64,000 bases of DNA from a virus. Made by a program: the position numbers and the translations under genes. This document shows positions 35,571 to 52,540 of this stretch, piece by piece. Under the pieces are notes generated by a model that was not told where the DNA came from, searched no databases, and was given only the letters and a program-made list of their open reading frames with translations. Each line of letters begins with the position of its first letter. Position 1 is the stretch's first letter. The stretch is from the IMG/VR virus record IMGVR_UViG_3300023202_000336, positions 62,001 to 126,000 of that record; one strand, given 5' to 3'.

Positions 35571-38004
35571 GCGAATTGACCCTCATGGGACGCTGGCGTT
35601 ACTGGGAGTCGACGTTGGTCGGATATATCCGACATCGACTGATTGTCCACTCTGTAGATCGATCGGCAACCTCGAAATCAGGTCTGCGCACCATTTCCAC
35701 TGCCGGAACTGTCACTTCATCGGCGACATCGTCGAATTCTATGCAAGTGCGAAAGGGCTAGAGCTCGCAGAGGCGGTCAGCGAGCTCCCGCGACTCGGGG
35801 TCGCCGATTTCGAGGGTCGACATAAGTTCTACCTCGAGAAGAAGGAGCAGCAGCAGGAGCTGAAACAGTTCTTCGCCAGCGCTTCCGAGACCTTTACGAA
35901 GAATCCACCGCAGTCGACTCCCGAGATCATCTCGCGCCTGAAGATCCGCCATAATCGGCAGGTCTTCAAGCATCTCCAGCCGCACGTCGGGATCGCTCTT
36001 CGATCGCAATTCAAAGAGCTGGATATGAAGCTCCCGAAGCATGCGAAAGAGGCGCTCAGGCTCTGGGGGGTACGTTGGGCACTCGTGATCCCGACGTGGT
36101 CAGACGCCGACGTAGTCGGGATGTGGGTCATCACGAAGAGCAACGCTTGCTACCTCCCTTTCACGGATGAGATCAACTATCCGGCAGCCTTTGCGATGGT
36201 CCCGTCGATCCACGACGACACGGTCGTTGTGGTCGACGATATTCTGGCGGCGCTCCGCATGAGTGTCTGGTCGGTACTCGAGACGGGGCGTTGCCACGGG
36301 TTCGTCGTACCGTACGGTCTCAACGACCGGGCGGAGCTCTACAGCTGCGGGAAGACCGTTTTCTGGTCGGTAACGCGGAACCTCTCGTGGTTAATGCGCG
36401 CGATTTCGACGCCAACAGCGGCTATTCTCGATTCGAAGCTGATCGGTGACTTCGATCCGCTCGAGTCGTATCCGTGTCGCGGGAGCTTCGTCCAATTCAA
36501 ACGTCTCGTTTCCGAAGCGCTCCCTGCGCATCAGCAGCTCGCGGCGGATCTCACTTCGCTCAAGAAGAGCGAAGCACGATCGATGCTCTCCGGCGCGTCG
36601 TTCGAACCGGGTGAGAAGGCGAAGATGCTCGCGTACGTACAGGGATCGGACAGCATCTTTCTGTCGCAGCTCTTCGACGACGAGGTCGATACGGTCGCGG
36701 TGACGTGGGATGGTGAGACGATTTACGACACCGAAGAAGGATGGCGCCTCCCTGGTGGGAAGGTAATCGCGTCGGCGAAGCTCTTCATTGATCAGATACA
36801 TGCTGCAAGCGACGCGAACGAAGCTCTGGTACGAGGGTCGATCGTCTTCAACAAGCGGAGCTATATTTTCCGAGAGAAGCTCGGAATCATTCAGGAGAAC
36901 CCGGCGAAGTGGATTACAAATTATCTCGTCGGTATCGGTGCTTCGGGCGGTATCCCCTACTTCGATATGAAGTGGAAAAAGAAGTTGATCGAAGTTGCGC
37001 AGCAGTTCCAGGAGCCAGAGGTTATTTCGGAAGCGCAGGGTTACGGCTGGCGCGGGCCGGAGGACCGCAAGTATCTGCGGATGCCGAGCTTCGTAGTCGA
37101 TTCTACGGGGGTCCATCCTACCGCTGGCCTTATGGAAGGCCCTGCGCTCGTCCTCCCGCACCCGCTTTCGTCGCGCGAGTGGAGTGCCTTCCGAAGCATG
37201 AGTTTTGCGCGATTGGTGCTCGTGTTTTTAGGGACGATGGTTCGAACGCGCCAAGGGTTCCCGGGATTTGGAATCATGTTGACGAACGAGCCACATGTAA
37301 TCGCACGAATAGCTTACACGATCTCGGCAGACGTCGTCAGTTGCCCTTCGAACGAATACATCGATCAGCACCTTTTCGATCCGTTGCCGCTCTTCACCGA
37401 GTGGAACGAGCAGAGCATTCCGAAGATTTTCGAGAAGCGCGGAATGAAGAACATCATGCTAAGCGTCGATTCGCATACCGCTGAGGTGAGTAAAATCTAT
37501 ACCGATTGGGTACACCTTCGTATCGGGGACATCGTCGATTATCAGGCGCTTCGAGCAGTCTTTCTCCTGCTCCCGAAGTTACTCCACGACGACAAAATCG
37601 ACCCAGCGTCCCCCGAGTTCTTCAAGCGTATTGCTGCTTCGCTTCAGGCTGAGCTCGATGAGAGTTGTGACGGTCATCAGCTTCTGATGGCCGCGTCTCA
37701 ACTCGATCACTACTGCAGCTGTAGAAATCAGTTTACCTCGGCGAGCCGTCTTCTCGAATTCATATTCTATGGGATCGAGCGAGATTTCATCACCCCGCGT
37801 ATCGAAGACGACGGCGTCGTGATACTTCACGAGGAGTTCCTCGCCGCTACGTCGAGTACGCTCGTACCGGTTCCGTCGCTTTCGGAGCTGACGGAAACGT
37901 TCTCCGAAGCACGTTTCCTCGTTCCCGACCGTAAACCACGTAGCGCGTGGAAAATCAGCCGAACGACCTGGGACGTAAATCAGACACTGATCGCCGCCCG
38001 TTAA
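35569..38004 (+). CDS. CHC2-type zinc-finger primase-like protein
   Basis: I prefer ATG 35569 (MRIDPHGTLALLGVDVGRIY) over the GTG at 35563. The 811-residue product has a zinc ribbon at the N-terminus (CPLC...HFHCRNCHFIGDIVEFYA), the arrangement of CHC2 primase fingers. It is followed by a Toprim-like segment with VIPTWSDADVVGMWV and VVVVDDILAALRMSVW. A later region (about 455-700) looks like a helicase domain in strand pattern, but I see no Walker A P-loop. It may be a primase with a degenerate helicase partner. It ends overlapping the convergent glycosyltransferase gene by 4 nt. Confidence 0.5.
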   Translation: MRIDPHGTLALLGVDVGRIYPTSTDCPLCRSIGNLEIRSAHHFHCRNCHFIGDIVEFYASAKGLELAEAVSELPRLGVADFEGRHKFYLEKKEQQQELKQFFASASETFTKNPPQSTPEIISRLKIRHNRQVFKHLQPHVGIALRSQFKELDMKLPKHAKEALRLWGVRWALVIPTWSDADVVGMWVITKSNACYLPFTDEINYPAAFAMVPSIHDDTVVVVDDILAALRMSVWSVLETGRCHGFVVPYGLNDRAELYSCGKTVFWSVTRNLSWLMRAISTPTAAILDSKLIGDFDPLESYPCRGSFVQFKRLVSEALPAHQQLAADLTSLKKSEARSMLSGASFEPGEKAKMLAYVQGSDSIFLSQLFDDEVDTVAVTWDGETIYDTEEGWRLPGGKVIASAKLFIDQIHAASDANEALVRGSIVFNKRSYIFREKLGIIQENPAKWITNYLVGIGASGGIPYFDMKWKKKLIEVAQQFQEPEVISEAQGYGWRGPEDRKYLRMPSFVVDSTGVHPTAGLMEGPALVLPHPLSSREWSAFRSMSFARLVLVFLGTMVRTRQGFPGFGIMLTNEPHVIARIAYTISADVVSCPSNEYIDQHLFDPLPLFTEWNEQSIPKIFEKRGMKNIMLSVDSHTAEVSKIYTDWVHLRIGDIVDYQALRAVFLLLPKLLHDDKIDPASPEFFKRIAASLQAELDESCDGHQLLMAASQLDHYCSCRNQFTSASRLLEFIFYGIERDFITPRIEDDGVVILHEEFLAATSSTLVPVPSLSELTETFSEARFLVPDRKPRSAWKISRTTWDVNQTLIAAR

Positions 38005-39662
38005 TCGAGCGGCTGTTTTTCCATCAATTTCGCGAGCTCTTCGTCGGGCTCTTCCGGATCGCGGAGCGTCGAATACTTACCGACCTTCTTCGTGATCCCC
38101 ATATACTCGGCGATCGTATCGGCGTCCCAGCTGATCATTCGAGCACGTTCGGCGATGTTGTACTTCTTATGATGTTCGTGTGGAACACACGAGGGGGTAC
38201 GTTCGTGAAAGAAGTGAGCAAGAGGACCACCTACACGAATTACTTTTGCACCGAGCTTCTGCGCCCGCGCAACCACCTCGTCATCCTCTGCGCCCCAGCC
38301 ACGGAAAAGCTCAGAAAAACCACGAATATGACGAAGGAAAGAAGTACGGTGAAGGCAAATACCGCCGCCAATAACCTGATCAAAAGCATGGTCATAATTC
38401 CTCGGGTCGTTTACGGCGCTGAAGTCGAACTCTCCGTATTTTGCGTCTCGAATGAACTTTCGATGAAGATGATAGAAGATAGAATAAGGCATTGCGATAT
38501 CGGCGTCGCCTTCGACGATATTTTCGTACGCTGTTTGAAGACTCTGCCCTGGGATGATAGTATCGGTATCCCACACTGCTATGGCTTTTGACTCGATCCA
38601 CGGAAGTACCGTATTGAAGGGGCGGCCACGGCACCACACTTCAGCTTTACTTCGTTGTACGAATACGTAGCGGATACGATCATTATCTTTGAAAAAGTTG
38701 AAGAGCTTCGGTTCATCGTCTACTTCTACTACGTAAAGTAATGGTACGTGAAGTCTTTTCGTTACGTACTCTGACACTACTAACAGGTTCTCGAGTCTAT
38801 CGGTCGAATCGATTTTCACGGGCATGATTGCGGTGAGTTCGTTGAGCATAGTTTCGGCCCCTACTGTATTACAGGAATTCGACGCGACATTTTTCGGTCT
38901 TTCTAGGAACTGGCGAGCAGCGACGTTAAAGGTCGTATCTTTTTCAAAGATATCTGATTCACGTATATGTTTAAGGAACGGCTCATACGCCACCTTTTGA
39001 CATAGATCTATTACGTAGGACTGTGAAAAGTTAACGTTGTTTTCGTATAACATAATACGCCCCTGGTCGTCCCAAGTATTTCGGCCGAAGCCATTCAGAA
39101 TCACCCCAGATACAAGCTCTGGATATTTTGATCTGAGCGCCGTCGTGACTTCTCCGGTGTATATCCCCCATCCTTTCAGAATATAGTGCGCGTAAGTAAG
39201 ATAGATTTTTAGAAACTCACTACCAGCCGGTGCTAAAAGTCCGCTGGTCATCAAACGCTGTGAGCCATCAGAGAGGTATTCCCATGGTACAAGGCACTTA
39301 TTAGTATTCAGAAACGGTTTAAGATCTTTGAGGAACAAAGTATCTATATCGTAATAGACCCCGCCCCGTTCGTAAACGATTTCAACTCTTGCAAGGTTTG
39401 AGATAGCTGCGTGGTTCGGCATCGTTTCGCCGTTAATTTCTCGTTTAAAGTTGTAGTACTCGACATTGGCATACTTTTTAGCGCTGTTCCAATACTCGTT
39501 ATCCTCCGGTTCCGGGCCGTCAATATATATTGTAATCGATTCCGGATCCTGCGTATCGTAACATGATTTAATACTTAGGTAATGATAAAGACAAAACGGT
39601 TTAGCATCCTTACCGTTAACAGGGAGTACGAGGAATATAAAATGGAATTTTTTTGGAATCAT
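38001..39662 (-). CDS. Bifunctional glycosyltransferase (GT32-like plus GT7/GT2-like fusion)
   Basis: Residues 1-250 resemble GT32/OCH1-type enzymes: MIPKKFHFIFLV, NLARVEIVYERGGVYYDIDTLF with the DxD motif, and FGRNTWDDQ. Residues about 272-553 form a second enzyme starting MLNELTAIMPVKID, with VWDTDTI (DxD), GGGICLHRTSFLRHIRGFSE and GWGAEDDEVVARAQKLG, the galactosyltransferase C-terminal motif. Each half looks complete. The first bases of the second half recur upstream of the gene (39710-39736), which suggests that the fusion arose by insertion or recombination. It ends the minus-strand glycosyltransferase operon and may modify the phage particle or host envelope. Confidence 0.8.
   Translation of the reverse strand: MIPKKFHFIFLVLPVNGKDAKPFCLYHYLSIKSCYDTQDPESITIYIDGPEPEDNEYWNSAKKYANVEYYNFKREINGETMPNHAAISNLARVEIVYERGGVYYDIDTLFLKDLKPFLNTNKCLVPWEYLSDGSQRLMTSGLLAPAGSEFLKIYLTYAHYILKGWGIYTGEVTTALRSKYPELVSGVILNGFGRNTWDDQGRIMLYENNVNFSQSYVIDLCQKVAYEPFLKHIRESDIFEKDTTFNVAARQFLERPKNVASNSCNTVGAETMLNELTAIMPVKIDSTDRLENLLVVSEYVTKRLHVPLLYVVEVDDEPKLFNFFKDNDRIRYVFVQRSKAEVWCRGRPFNTVLPWIESKAIAVWDTDTIIPGQSLQTAYENIVEGDADIAMPYSIFYHLHRKFIRDAKYGEFDFSAVNDPRNYDHAFDQVIGGGICLHRTSFLRHIRGFSELFRGWGAEDDEVVARAQKLGAKVIRVGGPLAHFFHERTPSCVPHEHHKKYNIAERARMISWDADTIAEYMGITKKVGKYSTLRDPEEPDEELAKLMEKQPLD
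38823..38849 (-). repeat. 27-bp direct repeat, copy 1 (inside the fused glycosyltransferase)
   Basis: On the minus strand this encodes MLNELTAIM, the junction of the two enzyme halves. It matches 39710-39736 at 26 of 27 positions. Confidence 0.9.
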
Positions 39663-39686
39663 ATCGTTCCCGTGACGTTTATATAG

Positions 39687-39791
39687 TTAAGTGGTTCGAT
39701 AAAATACAGCATGATTGCGGTGAGTTCGTTTAGCATATGATAAGTTATCGAAAACCCAACCGGGCTTATCAGCAAGTAAAAGTATTTTCAT
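39687..39791 (-). pseudogene. Remnant of a glycosyltransferase gene
   Basis: A 34-codon frame begins MKILLLADKPGWVFDNLSYA, which is a typical GT-B glycosyltransferase start, then continues KRTHRNHAVFYRTT and stops. The switch from family-like to nonsense sequence coincides with a 27-bp copy of the junction sequence of the downstream fused gene. It is read here as the truncated N-terminus of a lost glycosyltransferase; a functional micropeptide is unlikely. Confidence 0.55.
39710..39736 (-). repeat. 27-bp direct repeat, copy 2
   Basis: Same orientation as the copy at 38823-38849, with one mismatch. It lies inside the glycosyltransferase remnant in a different reading frame, marking a recombination scar. 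Confidence 0.9.
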
Positions 39792-39802
39792 GGCGGTGCC
39801 TA

Positions 39803-40423
39803 TTAGCGTCTAGTTAGGGAAATCCAGGTAGCCTGTTCAGTAACGTCATCTTGTAAAAACAACGGATCGTTAGTAGCAAGTACTATATGTCTCCCCATGT
39901 TACGGGCCAAATATCTATCCGCTGGACAGTTATCGCTTTTAATAGCGCTATCACGGCATGCCTTTGATATTACTTTTAGAGAGTTCTCGACATAACTTTC
40001 AGTAACATGTAACACAGCATGAGTACCACACATATTAAGTATCCGTATACATTTAGAGCTATATTTATATATCGCTACTTTTCCTAGTTCAGAGTGACCG
40101 GGCCCTACTGGGCCATATAGAGAGTGGCCTAAGTATACGCGGTCTGTTTCGTCCGGTATATCTATGATAGGAGTATACCACCCTGTTTCTTTTGCGTCAT
40201 CTTCGAGTACCAAGGCCGGCAGTCTACCGCGTATGTAGCAGGCGGCATGGAAGGCAGCAAGGTTGGCACCAAGATATTTCTTTCTACTCTTAACCCCCGG
40301 GATTCTTTCGTGACGTGTAATACCAAGTCTCTCAAACATATTTTCGATGTTTTTACGACGCGCTACATCTTGATCTAAGTTAATGTAAAATACATTAACA
40401 TCTTTCCTGAGGTCGAGTTTCAT
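39803..40423 (-). CDS. GT25-like glycosyltransferase
   Basis: The start is taken as the ATG complementary to 40421-40423, overlapping the preceding stop by ATGA; a longer GTG form from 40447 is possible. The 206-residue product has VFYINLDQDVARRKNIENMF at the N-terminus and ALVLEDDAK further on, both characteristic of GT25 (LPS biosynthesis) enzymes. LGANLAAFHAACYIRG fits the conserved GCxxSHxxxW region in place, but not in exact residues. Codon usage is AT-rich. It probably adds a sugar to a surface glycan or virion protein. Confidence 0.75.
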   Translation of the reverse strand: MKLDLRKDVNVFYINLDQDVARRKNIENMFERLGITRHERIPGVKSRKKYLGANLAAFHAACYIRGRLPALVLEDDAKETGWYTPIIDIPDETDRVYLGHSLYGPVGPGHSELGKVAIYKYSSKCIRILNMCGTHAVLHVTESYVENSLKVISKACRDSAIKSDNCPADRYLARNMGRHIVLATNDPLFLQDDVTEQATWISLTRR

Positions 40424-41646
40424 ATCATCCCCATCAATCGTAACCACTCGTTTGCAGTTTGTTTCGGTGAAGACTGCACGACTGGAGGCTGCACGTTGTT
40501 TACGGAATGCTCCCTGATTGTTTCAGCAATCATTTCAGCCGCCTCACGCGGATCGACGGTACGAATATACGAGTCGGGAGTATGTTCTGTTTCCCGCCCG
40601 GGATACCATTCGAAACGTGACGCTTCCAGCTCGATACCTCGTCCGTCGATGATCTCACCGGTTACGAAATCGTTCGGTCCAGCGACAAGAGTTCCAGCCG
40701 ACATCGCTTCTGCTACCGTAAAGTTCCAGCTATTTTTAAGTGAAGTGTCGAGTACGAGATCGCACGCGTTGTAGAGGTAGTTCATCTCTTGATCCGAAAG
40801 TCCTGGGGCTTTAGTCTTCTGATCGAAGAATCCGTATCCGAGTAGTATATCGTCCTCGAGTTCCAACTCGTTTCCGATCACGAGTGACTCGATATCGAGC
40901 CATTCGTTCTCGGTGTTAGCGGGTCGATATGGTGACATATGAAGGTAGCCTCTCACTTTTCCATCGATGAACGGATCTTTTTCGTTGAGAGTCTTCAGAT
41001 GCGCGATGGTCTGAATCGCGAGTGGGATCCCCTTCTTGATCGTCGGATTCCCGGAAACCAGTATGAGGAAGTCGTTCGGATCGACCTTTTCGTTGAAGAG
41101 ATGCTGACGAAGTTCCTCGGGCCCGTATTCGCCCGCATGTACGTTGAGTGGACGGAATATCGATGAATCTACCGCAGGCGGGATATACCACATATTCCGC
41201 GCAGCCACGTACGTATCGATATCTACCTTGTTCTCCTGCGTAGCTTCGATGAGTGCTTCCCGATAGGCGGCTCGAGCCATATATGAAGGCGTTACGAAAA
41301 AGTCGAATTTGGATACCGTTTTAAGATACTTCCCGTCGATAAAGGGAGTATCGATAAGGCCGTAACCGATCGAAAGACTATTGCGGACTTCCAGATTATC
41401 TGCCAGATCTTCGAGTGTCCCTATATCGAGTGTATGCGTAATACCCAGCGTTTTCTCAGCAGGTACGGCGTTTAGGACTTCTACGTTATCAGGGGGATCG
41501 AACTGATACGCCCCCTGGTAGGGGGCCCTGACGGCTACGAGAATACGTTCGAAGCGAGGCCCCCAGAGGGGGAGCATATCTTTGAGAAACCGCCCGAAAA
41601 GGTAGTGATCACCCGGGTGGGGGGAGCAGATCATGAGTTGAGCCAT
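40420..41646 (-). CDS. GT4-type (GT-B fold) glycosyltransferase
   Basis: The ATG complementary to 41644-41646 gives MAQLMICSPHPGDHYLFG, a natural start; an extra 13 residues from 41685 are less likely. The 408-residue protein has a Rossmann-like N-terminal domain and a C-terminal donor-binding domain with LILVSGNPTIKKGIPLAIQ and NSWNFTVAEAMSAGTLVAG, the E-x7-E-like motif of GT4 enzymes. It leads the minus-strand sugar operon. The upstream sequence on the minus strand has TTGACA as a possible -35. Confidence 0.8.
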   Translation of the reverse strand: MAQLMICSPHPGDHYLFGRFLKDMLPLWGPRFERILVAVRAPYQGAYQFDPPDNVEVLNAVPAEKTLGITHTLDIGTLEDLADNLEVRNSLSIGYGLIDTPFIDGKYLKTVSKFDFFVTPSYMARAAYREALIEATQENKVDIDTYVAARNMWYIPPAVDSSIFRPLNVHAGEYGPEELRQHLFNEKVDPNDFLILVSGNPTIKKGIPLAIQTIAHLKTLNEKDPFIDGKVRGYLHMSPYRPANTENEWLDIESLVIGNELELEDDILLGYGFFDQKTKAPGLSDQEMNYLYNACDLVLDTSLKNSWNFTVAEAMSAGTLVAGPNDFVTGEIIDGRGIELEASRFEWYPGRETEHTPDSYIRTVDPREAAEMIAETIREHSVNNVQPPVVQSSPKQTANEWLRLMGMI

Positions 41647-41659
41647 CGCGCGAACGCTA

Positions 41660-41681
41660 TTCCTATTTGAGGCAGTTGTCA
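41660..41681 (-). promoter_or_regulatory. Possible promoter of the glycosyltransferase operon
   Basis: On the minus strand TTGACA (41676-41681) is followed by a poor -10 candidate (TAGCGT) just before the ATG at 41646. The spacing to the start codon is short, so this is weak; the ATG at 41685 would exclude it. Confidence 0.2.
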
Positions 41682-41799
41682 ACAACCTTGTGGTGCCCCC
41701 TCGAGGGGCTTTCCGTTATCTGTGAACGCGCGTACAAAATCGAAAGCCCCCTGGGGGGCATAGTGAATTCAGAGCCTTATTTACGTATATATAAATGAG

Positions 41800-42460
41800 G
41801 AAAGTTATGCTATCGCAAGATAGCGTGGCTGGCAGCCGTAAAGCAATTTACGGTGGTCGCGCGGTTCTGAAGAATCGTGCGGCGGCGGAATCGCGATTCG
41901 TCGCGATTTCGTTTTGCCCTTGGTGGGACTGCGGTCCAGCGGACCGGGATCCTAAGGGATCCCGCTGCCGCCTTTCGGCGAAGTACGCCGGCACCTGGAG
42001 AGACGGTAATAAGCTCCGGGTGTAAAGCCCGCAAGGGTCAAAACCCGGAGTGAAATGGCCGTCTAGGAGTAAGCCCTACGTCATGAGGCATCTGAAACCG
42101 TCGTGACTCCTCCACGACAGACCCTCAGGGCAGCGTGAAAACAAAGCGCGTAAGACCAAGGTTCGGGCTGGTCCACGCTCGTAATAGAAGGACAAAACAA
42201 AACAAAAAGGATTAGGAGATGGCGCTCCGACATCCCATCTTCTTAACAGGGTACGTCCCTGAGAAGATGGCCTGCTATGTTACCCCTTGAGTGGGGAAGT
42301 TCCGCGAGGAGCAGGCGATGCCCGTTATCGATAAACGGGAAGTCTAAGGTATACCACCGCCCTTTGGTAGGAGTATATCGGAGGCGTTTTGTCCCGCGAT
42401 AGCAGCCACCTCCACGCGGTGCGGGATGGACACTTGGCTTGTTGCCAGGTGACTAGGAGC
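41800..42460 (+). ncRNA. Large ornate structured RNA candidate
   Basis: No convincing gene covers this stretch, but it folds into many exact helices on the plus strand. Examples are GCTATC/GATAGC with a GCAA loop (41809-41824), CCGTAAA/TTTACGG with GCAA (41836-41853) and AATCGCGA/TCGCGATT with TTCG (41889-41908). A nested set follows: AGACGG/CCGTCT (42001-42064) around CTCCGGGT/ACCCGGAG around CCC-GCAA-GGG. CCATCTTCT/AGAAGATGG (42235-42270) encloses CAGGG/CCCTG. CCTGCT/AGCAGG (42271-42315) encloses CCCC/GGGG. The last helix is CACTTGGC/GCCAGGTG (42431-42451). GNRA loops fix the strand. Size and style resemble the giant phage-associated GOLLD/ROOL-type RNAs, but I cannot assign a class. Confidence 0.75.
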
Positions 42461-42491
42461 TGCACGGCTGACCCGGACAGGAGACACGATC

Positions 42492-42896
42492 ATGAACATC
42501 GACCATACCGTCACCATCGACTACCTGCGGGCCTGGCGCGTCCGCCGTCTGCTGCGGCACCTGCCGCAGCACTACGAAGATGGCGGCGACCCCGACATCC
42601 CGCGCGGCGATGTCGGGGTCATCACTGGCCCCGGGATAGGGGCCGGGGAGCCCACGGGATACCGCGTCGAAGAGCGGGTAGTGGATGTCCCCGGATTCGG
42701 GGACATCCACGTCTGGATCCGACTGTCCTCTGGGCACCGGATCCAGGGTGGAGTCGTCGTGGGCTCAGGCACATGGAGGGTCCAGGACGCCTACGTCCCG
42801 GGCATGCAGGAGTTCGACATGGCTCAGCTGTCGGCCATCGTTGACCAGTTGGATGTCGACCTTCTGCGGCAGACTGAGGACCTACTAGACGCCTGA
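42492..42896 (+). CDS. Small accessory protein, GC-rich
   Basis: The 134-residue product starts at an ATG preceded by CAGGAGACACGATC. It has a helical start (YLRAWRVRRLLRHLPQHYED), a beta-rich middle with repeated GDVGVITG/GDIHVWIRL segments, and a helical end (MAQLSAIVDQLDVDLL). GC content is clearly higher than in neighbouring phage genes. It lies directly after the structured RNA and may share its transcript. Family not recognised. The overlapping frame at 42389-42844 is rejected. Confidence 0.6.
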   Translation: MNIDHTVTIDYLRAWRVRRLLRHLPQHYEDGGDPDIPRGDVGVITGPGIGAGEPTGYRVEERVVDVPGFGDIHVWIRLSSGHRIQGGVVVGSGTWRVQDAYVPGMQEFDMAQLSAIVDQLDVDLLRQTEDLLDA

Positions 42897-42989
42897 CCCG
42901 GACCAGGGCACCGTCTCCGCACGGTGCCCGCGCCCTGGCCACGCGTCATCACCACCGGCCCTTCGGGGCACACAGGAGACCTTCATGTT

Positions 42990-43931
42990 ATGACAGACAA
43001 AATAGAAAAACTGACTCCAGAGCAAGAAGCTCTGGTGCCCGTTTACCGCCAGCGATACTTCGATATCGGCTGGTCGACGGACGAGACCGATCGGGAGGCG
43101 GCCGAGAAGGCCATGCGAGAGTTGCACGAGATCAAGGGTTGGGATCAGCCGGAGATCGTCTGGTTCCAGAGCCCCTACGCGGCCGTGGACACGATCATCG
43201 AGTCCTCGGACAAAGATCCCGAAAACACCGATATTTCGATGAACGGCCCCTGCGCCGCGCTGGACGCGGTATGGGGGTGCTTCTACAAGTTCGGCGAGGA
43301 ACTAAAGCCGGACATGTATAAGGAGGAGGACAGTCGTCTGCTCGACGCCTGGGACCGACTGTGCAAGAGCTGCGGCCCCTGCTGGCTCTATACCAATTAT
43401 GTCCTGATGACGGACAAGCCGGTGGAGGCCCACTACAACGATGGGGAGCTCGTGCACTGTGACACGGGCCCCGCACTACGGTATTCAGATGGTCACGAGA
43501 TGTACGCTATCGACGGCGTGCGTTTGCCGCGGTCTATCGCCAAGAAGGCAGTGATGACTCCTTGGGAGATGACGCTCGAGGAGATCGAGGATTCGGATCT
43601 CGACGAGGATGTCCGCACCATCCTGCAAGACAGGTGGTGCTACAATGAGATCGATGATGCCGGCGATTACGTCGGTTCGGGTGGCGGTCGTTTTCTCAAG
43701 GAGACCGGTGCCGTTTCGATTCACGAGGACGTATACAAGGCTTACAAGGACGTGGCCATCATGCGAAGCCTCCTGCGCGACAAGTACGGCAGGAAGTGGT
43801 TGATGTGCGCTGATTCGTCGACCACGCGAGTGTACTACATTCGCGTCGATGACTCGGCGAGCACGTGCGAGGAGGGGCACATGTCGATCAACGGCGGTAC
43901 CCCAGACAGTGATATCCAGGTCAGCTCGTAG
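42990..43931 (+). CDS. DUF6745-like protein
   Basis: The ATG at 42990 has CAGGAGACC about ten bases upstream; an in-frame ATG at 42924 is less well supported. The 313-residue product has the pattern RELHEIKGWDQPEIVWFQSPYAA, then GPCWLYTNYVLMTDKPVEAHYNDGELVHCDTGPALRYSDGHEMYAIDGVRLP, which I recall from DUF6745 proteins of soil bacteria. The function of that domain is unknown. It is GC-rich, and the gene belongs to the 42.4-44.5 kb island that looks transferred from a bacterial genome. Confidence 0.6.
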   Translation: MTDKIEKLTPEQEALVPVYRQRYFDIGWSTDETDREAAEKAMRELHEIKGWDQPEIVWFQSPYAAVDTIIESSDKDPENTDISMNGPCAALDAVWGCFYKFGEELKPDMYKEEDSRLLDAWDRLCKSCGPCWLYTNYVLMTDKPVEAHYNDGELVHCDTGPALRYSDGHEMYAIDGVRLPRSIAKKAVMTPWEMTLEEIEDSDLDEDVRTILQDRWCYNEIDDAGDYVGSGGGRFLKETGAVSIHEDVYKAYKDVAIMRSLLRDKYGRKWLMCADSSTTRVYYIRVDDSASTCEEGHMSINGGTPDSDIQVSS

Positions 43932-44005: not shown

Positions 44006-44452
44006 ATGTCCGAAGACAGCATACTCGAGGTCAGCGAACGCATGCATATCTCGGCCCGCAAGGGCGCCGACCCCGAGACCCGCTTGATCGATGGCATTAC
44101 CGCCACGATCGACTACGGCAAGAGGGGCCGCCAGGGCGACGTGTACCTGAAGCGCCTGACATGCGACCGCAAGCTGGTCAAGGGCCTGAGGAAGACAGAC
44201 AACCCGCAGCTGGTGCCCGGTACCTCCATCGGCAGCCGCCACACGCTGCGGATGGACCGCGGTGAGGAGATCTACCTCCGCAAGAATCCCAGTCCCCTCC
44301 AGGGGCCGATCATCTACGCGCCGAACGGGTTCTACCTCGAGCATCCGAAACACGCGGACTTCGATTGCCGTCTGCCCGGCGTTTACGAAGTCACCTTCCC
44401 GGCCGACAAGGTCGCAGAAGAGCTCGGCGAGATCCGTCGCCGGATCGACTAG
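44006..44452 (+). CDS. Small accessory protein, GC-rich
   Basis: The 148-residue product starts at an ATG preceded by AGAAGGAGCAACA. It is mixed alpha/beta (TRLIDGITATIDYGKRGRQG, DVYLKRLTCDRKLVKGLRK) and ends with a helix (ADKVAEELGEIRRRI). It is followed by a perfect palindrome. No family recognised. Confidence 0.6.
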   Translation: MSEDSILEVSERMHISARKGADPETRLIDGITATIDYGKRGRQGDVYLKRLTCDRKLVKGLRKTDNPQLVPGTSIGSRHTLRMDRGEEIYLRKNPSPLQGPIIYAPNGFYLEHPKHADFDCRLPGVYEVTFPADKVAEELGEIRRRID

Positions 44453-44465
44453 TCGATCCACTGAT

Positions 44466-44501
44466 CCTCGCTGCAGCTCGTCTAGACGAGCTGCAGCGAG
44501 G
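44466..44501. repeat. 36-bp perfect palindrome
   Basis: Each 18-nt arm reads CCTCGCTGCAGCTCGTCT, the exact reverse complement of the other, with TCTAGA at the centre. It lies 14 nt after a stop codon. As RNA it would be a very stable hairpin without a following T run, so it could be a Rho-dependent or processing signal, or a protein-binding site on DNA. Confidence 0.9.
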
Positions 44502-44550
44502 ACATCCGCCGCGACCTGAAGATCGTCTCATAAGACCGAAAGGAAGAAAC

Positions 44551-45824: not shown

Positions 45825-47549
45825 ATGCAAAGAGGACGCGATCCAGCGAATATTTACAGCTTCGCTGCATACGTATACCGCGAGGATTACGAGCGGACCG
45901 GCGATATACTGTTCAATGCGAACCGGTTCGGAAACGCGCTTGTCGCGATCGAACTCCACCGTCGCGAAGAGTGCGAGAAAATACTTCGACAGTGCTCGAA
46001 GGATTACACGGACGCGCGCGCCAAGGAAGACGCGCTCGTCGACCACCTTCAAGCGATCGGCAAGGAGCTGGGTCGATATCGCCAAAAGAAGCGTGAAAAG
46101 AAGACGCCGAAGGAGCTCCGTGAAAAGTACACGGAGGTCGAAGGGCAACTCGAGAAGCATCGAAACAGCGTGGTGCTTCCGATCCGCCGGGAGCTCTACA
46201 GGAGCCCCAAAGTCAAGAAGCTCCTGAAGAAGCTACATGAGAAGGTAACCGCGGATAAAAAAGAAGCGCGGGCCAACAGGAACTGTTACTGGGGGACGGG
46301 TGGTCTCGTGGAGAAGGCCCACGAGAATGACGGAGAAGGGCCGCCTCCGTCATTCAAGCGATTCGACGGAACCGGTCGAATCGGTGTGCAGCTCCAACAG
46401 CAGTCAGGAGCTCCTCCGTGGACCCCGGAGCGGCTCACGAGAGAGAACACTCTCCTGATGCTCGATGTGGACCAGATGCCCGATGATTTCGTCGGCGCCG
46501 ATCTGAACACAAGGTACAAGAAAAGTCAGAAGAAACGCTGTCCGGTCCGTATGAGGATCGGTTCGGAGAAAGCCAAGCCGGTGTGGCTCGACTTCATGGT
46601 CAAGTTCCATCGACCGCTTCCAGAAGGCTGCAAGATCAAAGCAGCCTGGATCCTTTTCAAAAAGGTCGGGACGCATACGAAAACGTATTTTCAAACGCAA
46701 GTGGCGCGTCCCGAGGGGTTCATGAGAGACGACGTCGCCGATGGCGGCCATGTCGCGGTCGATCTTGGCTGGAGAAAGTTCGAGGACGACCGGGTCCGCG
46801 TCGCCTACTGGCTCGGAGATGATGGAGAACAGGGTGAGATCGCTCTCGATCCGGAGCTCCTGAGCCGAGACCGGAAGAACCGGTCACTCCAGTCGATCTA
46901 CGATCGACAGTTCGACTCCATGAAGGAGCTCCTCCATGGCTGGATCACCGAGCACAAGAGTTCGGTTCCGGAGTGGCTGAAGGAGGAGACGAAGACCCTG
47001 CCGATCTGGAGATCGAGGTCCCGCTTGGCAAAGGTCATCATCAAGTGGAGGAAACACCAGTTCGACGGCGACGTCGAACTGTATAAAACCGCCGAAAAGT
47101 GGCGGAAGAAGGACAAGCACCTCTTCGACTGGCACAAGTTCCAGGCGAGGATCATCAGGGAAAAGCGGAAGGCGCTTTTCCGAGAGGAAGCGGCAAAGCT
47201 CGCGAGGCGTTATCGCTGCGTCATATTCGAAGATATGAAGATCAGCGATATGGCCAAGGACTCACCGGTGAGCAGCGATGACATGGATCCAATCAAGGAT
47301 ATCATGAAACTCGCGTCGCCAGGGGAGCTTCGAATGGAGTTCGAGAGTCGATTCCGAGACTCCACCAGACAGAAGACGAAGAACACGACGAGAGAATGTT
47401 CGGAGTGCGGTTTCGTTGACGGAGAGTTCGACTTCGTGAATCTGTACCACGAATGCCCGAACTGTCAGGCGGAGAAGGATCAAGATCTCAACGCCTGCGA
47501 GAACCTCCTCGCACGAGAGTTGGGGCCACCAGACGCTTCGGCCGCTTGA
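45825..47549 (+). CDS. cas12: Compact Cas12 effector (Cas12m/V-U lineage-like)
   Basis: The 574-residue protein has an N-terminal helical recognition part with NCYWGTGGLVEKAH and FKRFDGTGRIGVQLQ, then KFHRPLPEGCKIKAAWILF, all reminiscent of the Cas12m/Cas12c group. A RuvC nuclease follows: RuvC-I HVAVDLGWR (Asp313), RuvC-II VIFEDMKISD (Glu469), RuvC-III EKDQDLNACEN (Asp554), with a CxxC...CxxC zinc ribbon between II and III. All three acidic residues are present. Described Cas12m proteins bind DNA and silence transcription without cutting; whether this one cuts is unknown. No cas1 or cas2 is nearby. The start has TAAGGAGAACGAG upstream. A CRISPR array follows about 100 nt after the gene. Confidence 0.85.
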   Translation: MQRGRDPANIYSFAAYVYREDYERTGDILFNANRFGNALVAIELHRREECEKILRQCSKDYTDARAKEDALVDHLQAIGKELGRYRQKKREKKTPKELREKYTEVEGQLEKHRNSVVLPIRRELYRSPKVKKLLKKLHEKVTADKKEARANRNCYWGTGGLVEKAHENDGEGPPPSFKRFDGTGRIGVQLQQQSGAPPWTPERLTRENTLLMLDVDQMPDDFVGADLNTRYKKSQKKRCPVRMRIGSEKAKPVWLDFMVKFHRPLPEGCKIKAAWILFKKVGTHTKTYFQTQVARPEGFMRDDVADGGHVAVDLGWRKFEDDRVRVAYWLGDDGEQGEIALDPELLSRDRKNRSLQSIYDRQFDSMKELLHGWITEHKSSVPEWLKEETKTLPIWRSRSRLAKVIIKWRKHQFDGDVELYKTAEKWRKKDKHLFDWHKFQARIIREKRKALFREEAAKLARRYRCVIFEDMKISDMAKDSPVSSDDMDPIKDIMKLASPGELRMEFESRFRDSTRQKTKNTTRECSECGFVDGEFDFVNLYHECPNCQAEKDQDLNACENLLARELGPPDASAA

Positions 47550-47606: not shown

Positions 47607-47650
47607 ATGCGATATTGTTTATATATAAAAATTTTGACAGTACTGTTAGA
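47607..47650 (+). promoter_or_regulatory. AT-rich array leader
   Basis: An AT-rich stretch with TTTATATATAAAA (47618-47630) and TTGACA (47634-47639) directly precedes the first repeat. TATATA at 47620 could be a -10. No clean promoter with correct spacing is seen. Confidence 0.35.
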
Positions 47651-48199
47651 TATGCCCGCTCAGAGGCTTCGTATCTGAGACGAGGCGCGTGATCTCGAAC
47701 TCCTGGAGTATCCGCGTCGCTTATGCCCGCTCAGAGGCTTCGTATCTGAGACTGGGGCCTGCCAAACCACGCCCGCTTATGCCCGCTCAGAGGCTTCGTA
47801 TCTGAGACAGCGCTAGGTGAAGGCTGGCGGGGATGCCACGACCGTTTATGCCCGCTCAGAGGCTTCGTATCTGAGACGGATCGTTTTGGTGGTATCCCGC
47901 TTATGCCCGCTCAGAGGCTTCGTATCTGAGACGCCAATCCATCCAGGTACCCGCTGATGCCCGCTCAGAGGCTTCGTATCTGAGACTAGGCGCGTGATCT
48001 CGAACTCCTGGAGTATCCGCGCCGCTTATGCCCGCTCAGAGGCTTCGTATCTGAGACCCGCCTCGAGCACCCGTTTCGGGGGCGTTGATATCCCGCTTAT
48101 GCCCGCTCAGAGGCTTCGTATCTGAGACGACCACGCCTGCCGTCTCCGCGAACTCGGCTTCGCCCGCTGATGCCCGCTCAGAGGCTTCGTATCTGAGAC
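47651..48199 (+). CRISPR. CRISPR array, nine repeats
   Basis: Nine 31-nt repeats start at 47651, 47722, 47778, 47847, 47902, 47956, 48027, 48098 and 48169. Their core begins ATGCCCGCTCAGAGGCTTCG and ends TATCTGAGAC; CTCAGA/TCTGAG forms a 3' hairpin, and GAC is the final triplet, as in other single-effector type V repeats. Most spacers end with CCGCT, so the true repeat is probably about 37 nt with a less conserved 5' end. Measured between 31-nt cores, spacers are 40, 25, 38, 24, 23, 40, 40 and 40 nt. Spacers 1 and 6 match at 38 of 40 positions. Spacers look GC-rich. Confidence 0.97.
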
Positions 48200-48229
48200 G
48201 CCAATCCATCAAAGCCTCGTACCTGAGAC
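48200..48229 (+). CRISPR. Terminal degenerate spacer-repeat unit
   Basis: After the ninth repeat comes GCCAATCCATC, identical to the start of spacer 5, then AAAGCCTCGTACCTGAGAC, a truncated repeat. The gene at 48249 starts 20 nt downstream, so array and gene leader are merged. Confidence 0.8.
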
Positions 48230-48248
48230 ACCAACCAAGGAGAAAACC

Positions 48249-50733: not shown

Positions 50734-51378
50734 ATGGCAAGACTGAGCCAAAAAGAAGTCATCAACACGATTCGCGATTGCTACGGCGATTTCGAATCGG
50801 TAAGGGAGGGCGATAACGTCCGGGCCTACATCGGCCCGGATATCGAGGTCGTCGTTCCCCCTGGCGGCCCATTCAAGGACCCCGTCGTGGTCAGCGTTCC
50901 CGAGGAACGTATGCACTACGAGTTTCCGATTACCGCGGGTGGCATCGGCGATGCGGTCTTCTTCTTGAGAAAGAAGACCGCATCGCTGAAGGTCAAAGAC
51001 GGCAAGCGGCTCAAGAAAAACGAGCTGATCGCCCGTCGTGCCCTGTGGATGGCCTTCAAGGCCGCAGTCCCGCTCGAGAGCAAAATCCTCCACGTCGAAG
51101 ACGAGGAGGTGCTTTCCGAGAAGGAGCTGTGGAAGAAGGTGCAACCGAGCAGAACCGAAACGAAGTGGTCCATATTTCTCCGGTACCACTTCGGTCGGGC
51201 GCTCAACCTCAGCATCTGCTGGAACCGGGACGAGGTATGGATCGAACCCGACATCCTGACTCCCGGACGGCAGTCCTGGGTGAGTTCGTACAAGAGTGGA
51301 AGGGATCTCATCGCGAAAGCGATCGAATCAATCCGCGACGAGATCAAGGCACTGCGCGGTGCAGTGATTTTCAGGTGA
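50734..51378 (+). CDS. Unrecognised accessory protein
   Basis: The 214-residue product starts at an ATG preceded by CGGGAGGATTACCT. It has a helical start (SQKEVINTIRDCYGDF), beta segments (VRAYIGPDIEVVVPPGG) and a helical end (SGRDLIAKAIESIRDEIKAL). An inverted repeat (GCGATGCGGTCTTCTTC with GAAGAAGACCGCATCGC, 50948-50984) lies inside it. It follows repeat B and its terminator. No family recognised. Confidence 0.55.
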   Translation: MARLSQKEVINTIRDCYGDFESVREGDNVRAYIGPDIEVVVPPGGPFKDPVVVSVPEERMHYEFPITAGGIGDAVFFLRKKTASLKVKDGKRLKKNELIARRALWMAFKAAVPLESKILHVEDEEVLSEKELWKKVQPSRTETKWSIFLRYHFGRALNLSICWNRDEVWIEPDILTPGRQSWVSSYKSGRDLIAKAIESIRDEIKALRGAVIFR

Positions 51379-51380
51379 TC

Positions 51381-52496
51381 ATGAAAGGTTGGAAAGAGCT
51401 ACGGCCGAATGGTCGCCAACTTGCCGAGTACTGCGGAGAAGACGGAATCGGGTTCGACTATATCCGTTTCTCCAAAGGACCCGGCAGAACCGAGGCGAAG
51501 GAATTCGCCTCGGAAGAATCCCTCGCCGAATTCCTCGATTCAGGAGGTTTTACGCGATTTCCCTGCGTGTACGTAAAAGCACGAGGATACAAATCAAAGC
51601 GTAAAGCCAGAGTCCATGTCGGTGAGGGGACGCTCGTGGTAGCCATGGAGAACGGTATCACCGTTTCTCGCATGAGAGTTACCGTGAGCAACAGCTACCA
51701 AGAGGAGAGCTACGTGAGGGACAAAAAAGAGTCTCTGCAGGTGCGCAGAGAAAAAGTTCTCGACCGCTTGAGAGTGGTCGAGGCCAACGAGAGTAATACA
51801 GGCGCTGAATCTGCGTTGGGTTCGCGCTACCGTCATCAACTCAGTGAGATTGAGAAAGCAATTTCACGTGCCGAGGAAAGGGACGAAATGTCCGACATCG
51901 ATAAGACCGAAACCGAGATCGAGAAGACCGAGGTCAGCAAGGCCATCGAACCCCACGAGGAGCAGGAGAAGGCGATCGAGCGCAGCCTCGCGCGTGTCTC
52001 CGCCAGCGACGACGACAAGGGCAAGGCCAAGGAGGCCGAGAAGCCCGCGGACCGCAAGCGTGACCATCGCCCGCGCAATCGTCGTCACGAGATCACGGAT
52101 GAAGATGCGTTCAACTTCATCTTCTACGGCTCGCTGACTCCTCCGAGTACCGAGTACCTCCTCGCCGACGAGGTCCTCGATCGTCACGGCGGCTTCCTCG
52201 ACATCGGCGCCATCAAGCGTCTCATGAAGGCCGGCCGGTGCACCATCTGGCTCAACCCGGATGAAAACCCCGTCGAGCAGCTCGGCGGCGAAAAGGTAAA
52301 ACCCACCTACAACGGGTTCCTGGTCAAGAACGACCACGGGAAGTGGGTCGACCCCGAGTGCCGCGTGAACGGCGTGGTGGTGCGGATGGCCGCGATCGAG
52401 ATCGCCTTCAAATACCGGTACTACGATCGTACCGATACCTACATGATGCAGGTGGACTTCCGCATCCACCGCGCTGCACTCGACGTCGTCGAGTGA
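51381..52496 (+). CDS. Two-part accessory protein, possible fusion
   Basis: The start is ATG 51381, right after the preceding stop. Residues 1-165 are AT-richer and beta/helical (KGWKELRPNGRQLAEYCGED). Residues about 170-235 form a charged coiled coil beginning MSDIDKTETEIEKTEV, and the last 130 residues are a compact GC-rich domain (FIFYGSLTPPSTEYLLADEV, IAFKYRYYDRTDTYMMQVDF). The ATG at 51888 could start a separate gene for the second part. A strong terminator follows. Confidence 0.5.
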   Translation: MKGWKELRPNGRQLAEYCGEDGIGFDYIRFSKGPGRTEAKEFASEESLAEFLDSGGFTRFPCVYVKARGYKSKRKARVHVGEGTLVVAMENGITVSRMRVTVSNSYQEESYVRDKKESLQVRREKVLDRLRVVEANESNTGAESALGSRYRHQLSEIEKAISRAEERDEMSDIDKTETEIEKTEVSKAIEPHEEQEKAIERSLARVSASDDDKGKAKEAEKPADRKRDHRPRNRRHEITDEDAFNFIFYGSLTPPSTEYLLADEVLDRHGGFLDIGAIKRLMKAGRCTIWLNPDENPVEQLGGEKVKPTYNGFLVKNDHGKWVDPECRVNGVVVRMAAIEIAFKYRYYDRTDTYMMQVDFRIHRAALDVVE

Positions 52497-52540
52497 AGAA
52501 AGAGGGGCCGGCTGTACGGCCGGCCCCTCTTTCTTCTTTA
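52495..52540 (+). terminator. Strong intrinsic terminator
   Basis: An 18-bp perfect stem (GAAGAAAGAGGGGCCGGC and its complement) with a 6-nt loop is followed by TTTAG. The A-rich 5' arm would also terminate transcription in the other direction. Confidence 0.92.

What the first reader, a model, noticed from the sequence alone, without database searches (positions are those of the whole stretch)
41800..42460. Giant ornate structured RNA
About 650 nt without a convincing gene contain at least ten exact or near-exact helices, three with GCAA loops and one with TTCG, plus nested multi-helix junctions and covarying-looking G-U pairs. This level of structure matches the giant RNAs known from phages (GOLLD, ROOL) but I cannot align it to a class from memory. 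It may form a large RNA particle or scaffold during infection.
Basis: partly seen in the sequence, partly recalled or inferred. Interest (0 to 1): 0.88.

Follow-up and report, generated by a model that had tools for sequence, protein, structure and literature searches.

The report
Orphan phage RNA with HDV-like ribozyme
A large uncultivated phage carries a strongly folded RNA gene of about 590 letters that matches no known RNA family and appears to be cut free at its far end by a small self-cutting RNA of the hepatitis-delta type; nothing has yet been shown by experiment.

Summary
Window 41797-42390 (+) lacks a convincing gene and folds far better than chance: z about -7.5, as extreme as the best of about 120 same-size tiles of the 180-kb phage record. 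Three GCAA loops and one UUCG loop sit on strong stems, against 0.17 such loops per shuffle.

It is not GOLLD, ROOL, OLE, RNase P, tmRNA or a group I/II intron. No Rfam family matches the 590-nt body even at E<=10, and no relative was found in phage records, IMG/VR patterns or five related phages. The only other copy is a near-identical contig, so covariation cannot be tested.

Positions 42391-42463 form an HDV-like self-cleaving ribozyme: P1, P2, P3, P4 and active-site C, with a core almost identical to HDV's. It is sub-threshold in Rfam, but the descriptor gives about 0.2 matches per Mb of shuffled DNA. Cutting at 42390/42391 would release the RNA from the downstream mRNA. Related phages carry twister ribozymes in the same variable block. 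A TATATATAAA box occurs at only two loci in the record: before this RNA and before its CRISPR array.

Best reading: an orphan ornate phage ncRNA whose 3' end is made by a ribozyme.

The parts
41786..41795 (+). Promoter-like AT box TATATATAAA; the only other locus with it in the 180-kb record is just before the CRISPR array (47620-47629, where it also reads on the minus strand)
   Evidence: no sigma-70 consensus here, so a phage-specific promoter is inferred
41797..42390 (+). Large structured non-coding RNA (about 590 nt); 5' end inferred, 3' end = predicted ribozyme cleavage site
   Evidence: fold, tiles, loops; no Rfam family over the body
41803..41830 (+). 5' hairpin, 12 bp with 3 G-U pairs, GCAA loop
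   Evidence: pair probability 0.99
41837..41963 (+). Cluster of hairpins with GCAA, UGAA, UUCG and UAAG loops
   Evidence: main helices p 0.97-0.99
42001..42064 (+). Two-storey helix (AGACGGU/GCCGUCU, GCUCCGGGU/ACCCGGAGU) with an internal loop and a GCAA-capped hairpin
   Evidence: p 0.92-1.00
42188..42208 (+). A-rich, mostly unpaired linker between 5' and 3' domains; its start (42190-42198) can close the 3' domain
42209..42385 (+). 3' domain; hairpin loops UACGU (42252-42256) and AUCGAUA (42327-42333) contain self-complementary sequence
42190..42198 (+). GGACAAAAC, perfect 9-bp partner of 42386-42394 (GUUUUGUCC), which spans the predicted cleavage site; excludes ribozyme P1
   Evidence: p about 1 in the uncleaved, pseudoknot-free ensemble
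41808..41816 (+). UGCUAUCGC, perfect 9-bp partner of 42396-42404 (P1/P2 strands of the ribozyme); competes with the 5' hairpin
   Evidence: p about 0.5
42391..42463 (+). HDV-like self-cleaving ribozyme: P1 42391-42397/42421-42427, P3 42408-42410/42418-42420, P4 42432-42438/42444-42450, P2 42402-42406/42459-42463, candidate catalytic C 42453
   Evidence: RF02682, 25 bits, E 0.03, complete model
42480..42483 (+). GGAG ribosome-binding site of the downstream ORF
42492..42896 (+). ORF of 134 aa, no Pfam family, whose coding sequence holds several perfect hairpins; first cistron behind the ribozyme
42924..43931 (+). ORF of 335 aa with DUF6745; likely same transcript

Best explanation
It is an orphan large non-coding RNA of a tailed phage. 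Transcription starts close to the TATATATAAA box (inferred) and runs on into the ORFs at 42492 and 42924. An HDV-like ribozyme at 42391-42463 folds in the nascent transcript and cuts between U42390 and G42391 (inferred from homology to HDV-like ribozymes). This frees an ornate RNA of about 590 nt, ending in ...GUUUU with a 2',3'-cyclic phosphate, and leaves the mRNA with a 5'-OH end capped by the ribozyme fold. The freed RNA then works as a structured RNA in infection, most likely as an RNA or RNP scaffold (pure inference). Two 9-nt stretches of the RNA are perfectly complementary to the 18 nt around the cleavage site, so folding of the RNA may delay or gate cleavage (suggested, not shown).
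For: Fold far beyond chance and as extreme as the best tile of the record. GNRA/UNCG loops 4 against 0.17 expected. No convincing ORF. Complete-model HDV-F-prausnitzii match 42391-42462. Core CACCUCCACGCGGU, P1 of 7 bp starting with G-U, P2 5 bp, P4 7 bp. The descriptor gives 119 hits in 571 Mb of shuffled sequence, and this is the only ribozyme it finds in the six distinct phage records. The same core with a different P1 occurs before ORFs in other phage contigs (L044, L052, L057 with 7 bp, L035 with 6), though only P1 pairing was independent of how they were found. Related phages carry twister ribozymes in the same variable block. The AT box is shared only with the CRISPR array. Both 9-bp complements: 18 nt covered, 0.055% of shuffles.
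Against: The ribozyme is below the Rfam gathering score (25 against 44 bits) and the whole-window scan at E<=5 did not list it. Its J4/2 reads C-U-A-G where HDV-like ribozymes usually have C-N-R-A (from knowledge). In the pseudoknot-free energy model the uncleaved RNA prefers the competing helix by 11.6 kcal/mol. No diverged homolog, so no covariation. No expression data. Hairpin-rich coding DNA nearby shows that strong folding here does not always mean a non-coding RNA.
Confidence: 0.6

Rival explanations
1. The interval is a very long 5' leader of ORF 42492 rather than an independent RNA: a sensor or timing domain whose output is the HDV-like ribozyme, with the alternative helices acting as the switch and the cut changing mRNA stability or translation.
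For: Ribozyme lies 28 nt upstream of the ORF start with its own ribosome-binding site; the complements target exactly the cleavage region (0.055% of shuffles); other HDV-like and twister ribozymes of phages also sit just before ORFs.
Against: 590 nt of domains is much more than any known allosteric ribozyme needs (from knowledge); no ligand family recognised in Rfam; the local GCAA hairpin competes with one of the two complements.
Confidence: 0.22
2. The structured RNA is real but the HDV-like match is a chance resemblance; the RNA is closed by GGACAAAAC/GUUUUGUCC and continues into or ends within the downstream leader.
For: Sub-threshold Rfam score and absent from the whole-window list; the competing helix is predicted with p about 1; in the whole genome about 0.06-0.08 descriptor hits are expected by chance (from rates).
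Against: Core almost identical to the HDV antigenomic ribozyme, all four stems and the active-site C in the right order, position exactly at the end of the structured RNA (about 0.0002 expected in the interval); sister phages use other self-cleaving ribozymes at such places.
Confidence: 0.12
3. No dedicated RNA: the interval reflects a general tendency of this genome region to hold long palindromes at DNA or mRNA level.
For: Perfect hairpins of 9-18 bp occur in and between ORFs from 42.5 to 53.3 kb; both strands fold well.
Against: Multi-helix junctions and GNRA/UNCG loops on one strand are not produced by palindromes alone; the interval lies between an AT box and a ribozyme.
Confidence: 0.05
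4. Highly diverged member of a known class (GOLLD, ROOL, OLE, RNase P RNA, group I or II intron).
For: Size and two-domain layout with a linker resemble ROOL/GOLLD; two short strings (GAGGAAAGU, CCACGACAGA) resemble RNase P motifs from memory.
Against: No Rfam match over the 590-nt body at E<=10 in the 1-kb scan, apart from one minor snoRNA-model chance match on the minus strand; no tRNA cluster; the RNase P P4 pairing is absent by eye; not inserted in a gene.
Confidence: 0.01

Closest known systems
GOLLD and ROOL RNAs of phages and prophages (PMC12286853)
   Same: Large ornate phage RNA with many helices, two domains and a linker, no known protein partner
   Different: No covariance-model match; not near tRNAs; has an HDV-like ribozyme at its 3' border; oligomerisation unknown
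HDV-like ribozymes, nearest Rfam family HDV-F-prausnitzii (RF02682)
   Same: Whole model aligned: P1-P4, L3 core, active-site C
   Different: Score below gathering; J4/2 is CUAG; sits behind a 590-nt structured RNA
Theta ribozymes of gut phages (PMC10879173)
   Same: HDV-like ribozyme in a phage, cutting at the 3' end of a structured RNA; the paper also reports many theta ribozymes in non-coding regions in the sense of the nearest gene
   Different: Theta ribozymes are minimal HDV-like ribozymes and process tRNA 3' ends; here P4 is 7 bp and the upstream RNA is not a tRNA
Twister ribozymes (P1 and P5 types) in the related phages G002, G003, G006
   Same: Self-cleaving ribozyme before an ORF in the same variable block between the 35.5-38.0 kb gene and the terminase
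   Different: Different ribozyme class; the RNA upstream is unrelated in sequence

Membership tests
GOLLD / ROOL / OLE | Match to the Rfam covariance model | tested here: not met
   no match at E<=10 in 41600-42600, none at gathering in the window
GOLLD / ROOL | Often encoded near tRNA islands | tested here: not met
   no tRNA in the window or the rest of the record
GOLLD / ROOL / OLE | Forms homo-oligomers | not testable with these tools
   needs cryo-EM or mass photometry; two loops with self-complementary sequence are only a hint
HDV-like ribozyme | P1 (7 bp, G at the cleavage site), P2, P3, P4 in the nested double-pseudoknot order | tested here: met
HDV-like ribozyme | L3 core and GG(N)CA after P1 | tested here: met
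   ACCUCCACGCGGU and GGACA
HDV-like ribozyme | Active-site C in J4/2 in a C-N-R-A context | tested here: inconclusive
   C42453 is in the right place but reads C-U-A-G
HDV-like ribozyme | Rfam gathering score reached (a curators' threshold, not a biological feature) | tested here: not met
   25 against 44 bits for RF02682; the library's HDV-like families are narrow
HDV-like ribozyme | Self-cleavage in Mg2+ | not testable with these tools
   needs an in vitro assay
Theta ribozyme | Minimal form with cleavage site at the 3' end of a tRNA | tested here: not met
   no tRNA; 7-bp P4 present
Group I / II intron | Match to intron models; inserted in a gene | tested here: not met
   flanking ORFs are separate and divergent

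The most novel reading that the evidence does not exclude
A new class of ornate phage RNA whose 3' end is made by an HDV-like ribozyme, and whose own folding gates that ribozyme through the two helices that cover the cleavage site, so that only correctly folded RNA is released, possibly to assemble as a homo-oligomer.
Probability: 0.2. Interest if true: 0.88.

Novelty: new variant of a known kind. Interest (0 to 1): 0.62.

Why it matters
If true, it adds a large phage RNA outside GOLLD, ROOL and OLE, and gives HDV-like ribozymes a second processing job in phages besides tRNA 3' ends: making the 3' end of a giant non-coding RNA. It is directly testable with synthetic RNA. The finding that this phage group carries different self-cleaving ribozymes (HDV-like in one, twister in others) in one variable block suggests that ribozyme cutting of polycistronic transcripts is a shared strategy there.

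Tried and rejected
Rfam at gathering and relaxed thresholds for GOLLD, ROOL, OLE, RNase P, tmRNA, introns: nothing over the body. A resemblance to RNase P motifs noticed by eye was dropped: no model match and no P4 partner. BLASTN against 50,697 phage records: only chance 26-mers. The downstream ORF and the upstream glycosyltransferase found only the near-identical contig IMGVR_UViG_3300022723_000242, which is too close for covariation. Whole-record search of the related phages by BLAST, nhmmer and a single-sequence covariance model of 41996-42136: nothing. A 15-base match shared by relatives lies in their coding sequence, and so does a 53-nt G005 match over the ribozyme core. The Cas12m gene as a co-occurrence bait found only the same virus.

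Full report
Where it is. The window is bases 62001-126000 of a 180,134-bp virus record. It carries a baseplate-wedge match and a terminase, so it is a tailed phage. The interval lies between a leftward glycosyltransferase gene (40420-41685) and rightward ORFs at 42492, 42924 and 44006.

Is the structure real. Yes. The + strand fold of 41780-42500 is 60 kcal/mol below shuffled sequences (z -7.5). The 594-nt segment 41797-42390 is as extreme as the best of about 120 equal tiles of the record. Sixteen hairpins are predicted in this segment; three have GCAA and one UUCG, where shuffles give 0.17 such loops on average and never four. Some parts (42073-42179) are uncertain. The region downstream, inside ORF 42492-42896, is also rich in perfect hairpins, so hairpins alone are not proof of a non-coding RNA; loop types, junctions and lack of an ORF carry the argument.

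A relaxed Rfam scan of 1 kb found one credible match at the 3' edge: the whole HDV-F-prausnitzii model at 42391-42462, 25 bits, E 0.03. By hand: P1 GUCCCGC/GCGGGAU with the G-U first pair, P3 ACC/GGU, L3 UCCACGC, GGACA after P1, P4 ACUUGGC/GCCAGGU, P2 GCAGC/GCUGC, and C42453 in J4/2. The string CCACCUCCACGCGGU differs by one base from the antigenomic HDV ribozyme (own knowledge). A descriptor of P1, P3, L3 and the GNCA motif gives 119 hits in 571 Mb of shuffled sequence, hence about 0.0002 expected in this interval; in the six distinct phage records it finds only this ribozyme, listed with two possible P1 5' strands. The match is below Rfam's gathering score and was not listed in the whole-window scan, so it is strong but not proven. 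Searching IMG/VR for the core found similar ribozymes in other phage contigs: 7-bp P1 in L044, L052 and L057, 6 bp in L035, mostly directly before ORFs; their P1 sequences all differ. Only P1 pairing was independent of the search pattern.

Relatives. Terminase searches gave five related contigs, G002-G006, with TerL about 48-60% identical. In G002, G005 and G006 a homolog of the 35.5-38.0 kb gene is followed by a variable block and the terminase, as in the window; G003's record ends within that block. The block of the window holds the RNA, the ribozyme and the CRISPR system. In G003 the block holds a twister-P1 (63.5 bits, E 3.5e-13) and a Twister-P5; in G002 a Twister-P5; in G006 both by motif, again before ORFs. 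None holds a sequence or model relative of the 590-nt RNA. Thus the RNA is an orphan, while the habit of placing self-cleaving ribozymes in this block is shared.

Promoter. TATATATAAA occurs at only two loci in 180 kb: 41786-41795, just before the RNA, and 47618-47629, just before the CRISPR array. No sigma-70 consensus was found. A phage-specific promoter for non-coding RNAs is inferred.

Possible gating. GUUUUGUCC (42386-42394), which spans the predicted cut, pairs perfectly with 42190-42198, and GCGAUAGCA (42396-42404) with 41808-41816. Covering 18 nt this way happened in 0.055% of shuffles, and in 2 of 898 genome segments. These helices exclude P1 and P2 of the ribozyme. The uncleaved fold with them is 11.6 kcal/mol better than one with P1, P3 and P4, but P2 and the pseudoknot are not counted. 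The 12-bp GCAA hairpin at 41803-41830 competes with the second helix. Gating is a hypothesis.

How it most likely works. Shown by sequence: structure, ribozyme anatomy, order of parts. Inferred: transcription from about 41797, self-cleavage at 42390/42391, release of a 590-nt RNA and of an mRNA for ORFs 42492 onward. Speculative: scaffold or particle role. Two loops with self-complementary sequence (UACGU, AUCGAUA) could kiss between copies, as symmetric loops do in OLE and GOLLD (PMC12286853), and an A-rich linker separates two domains, but neither was tested.

Compared with known systems. It works like the theta ribozyme arrangement (PMC10879173), in which an HDV-like ribozyme makes the 3' end of a phage tRNA, but it is not a member: no tRNA, and a full P4. 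It is like GOLLD and ROOL in kind, but fails their model test and their usual tRNA context.

Novelty. New variant of a known kind: an orphan ornate phage RNA with a ribozyme-made 3' end. The absence of homologs and of expression data limits the score.

Noticed in passing
window 45825-47549 and 47650-48230: Phage-encoded Cas12m-like effector (574 aa, E 6e-47 to a Cas12m chain in the PDB) followed by a CRISPR array of 9 repeats with 8 spacers of uneven length (26-43 nt by an exact 28-nt core); spacers 1 and 6 are nearly identical. No clear target in the related phages.
   Followed up: partly
window 42492-42896: Coding sequence of a 134-aa ORF holds several long perfect hairpins (12 bp at 42588-42620, 13 bp at 42681-42710); structured mRNA or recoded sequence, unexplained.
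   Followed up: partly
window 44465-44502, 50948-50986, 52495-52536: Perfect inverted repeats with 16-18-bp stems; the first follows the 44006-44452 ORF without a T run.
   Followed up: no
L033:10606-10674 (-), L033:9533-9599 (-), L023:7846-7907 (+): Twister-P1 and Twister-P5 ribozymes in related phages in the same variable block before ORFs; G006 has both by motif.
   Followed up: yes
L057:2541, L044:1261, L052:243, L035:1349: HDV-like ribozymes in other phage contigs, mostly directly before ORFs (in L035 with a 6-bp P1) and not next to tRNAs.
   Followed up: partly
G003 reverse strand, 556-880 and 1141-1165 of the listing: Short hairpins followed by GUUAAA recur around small ORFs in G003 and G006; unknown element.
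   Followed up: no
window 38001-41685 (-): Cluster of glycosyltransferase-like genes next to the RNA; the end of one (40438-40627) is sharply diverged between two otherwise 99.9% identical contigs.
   Followed up: no
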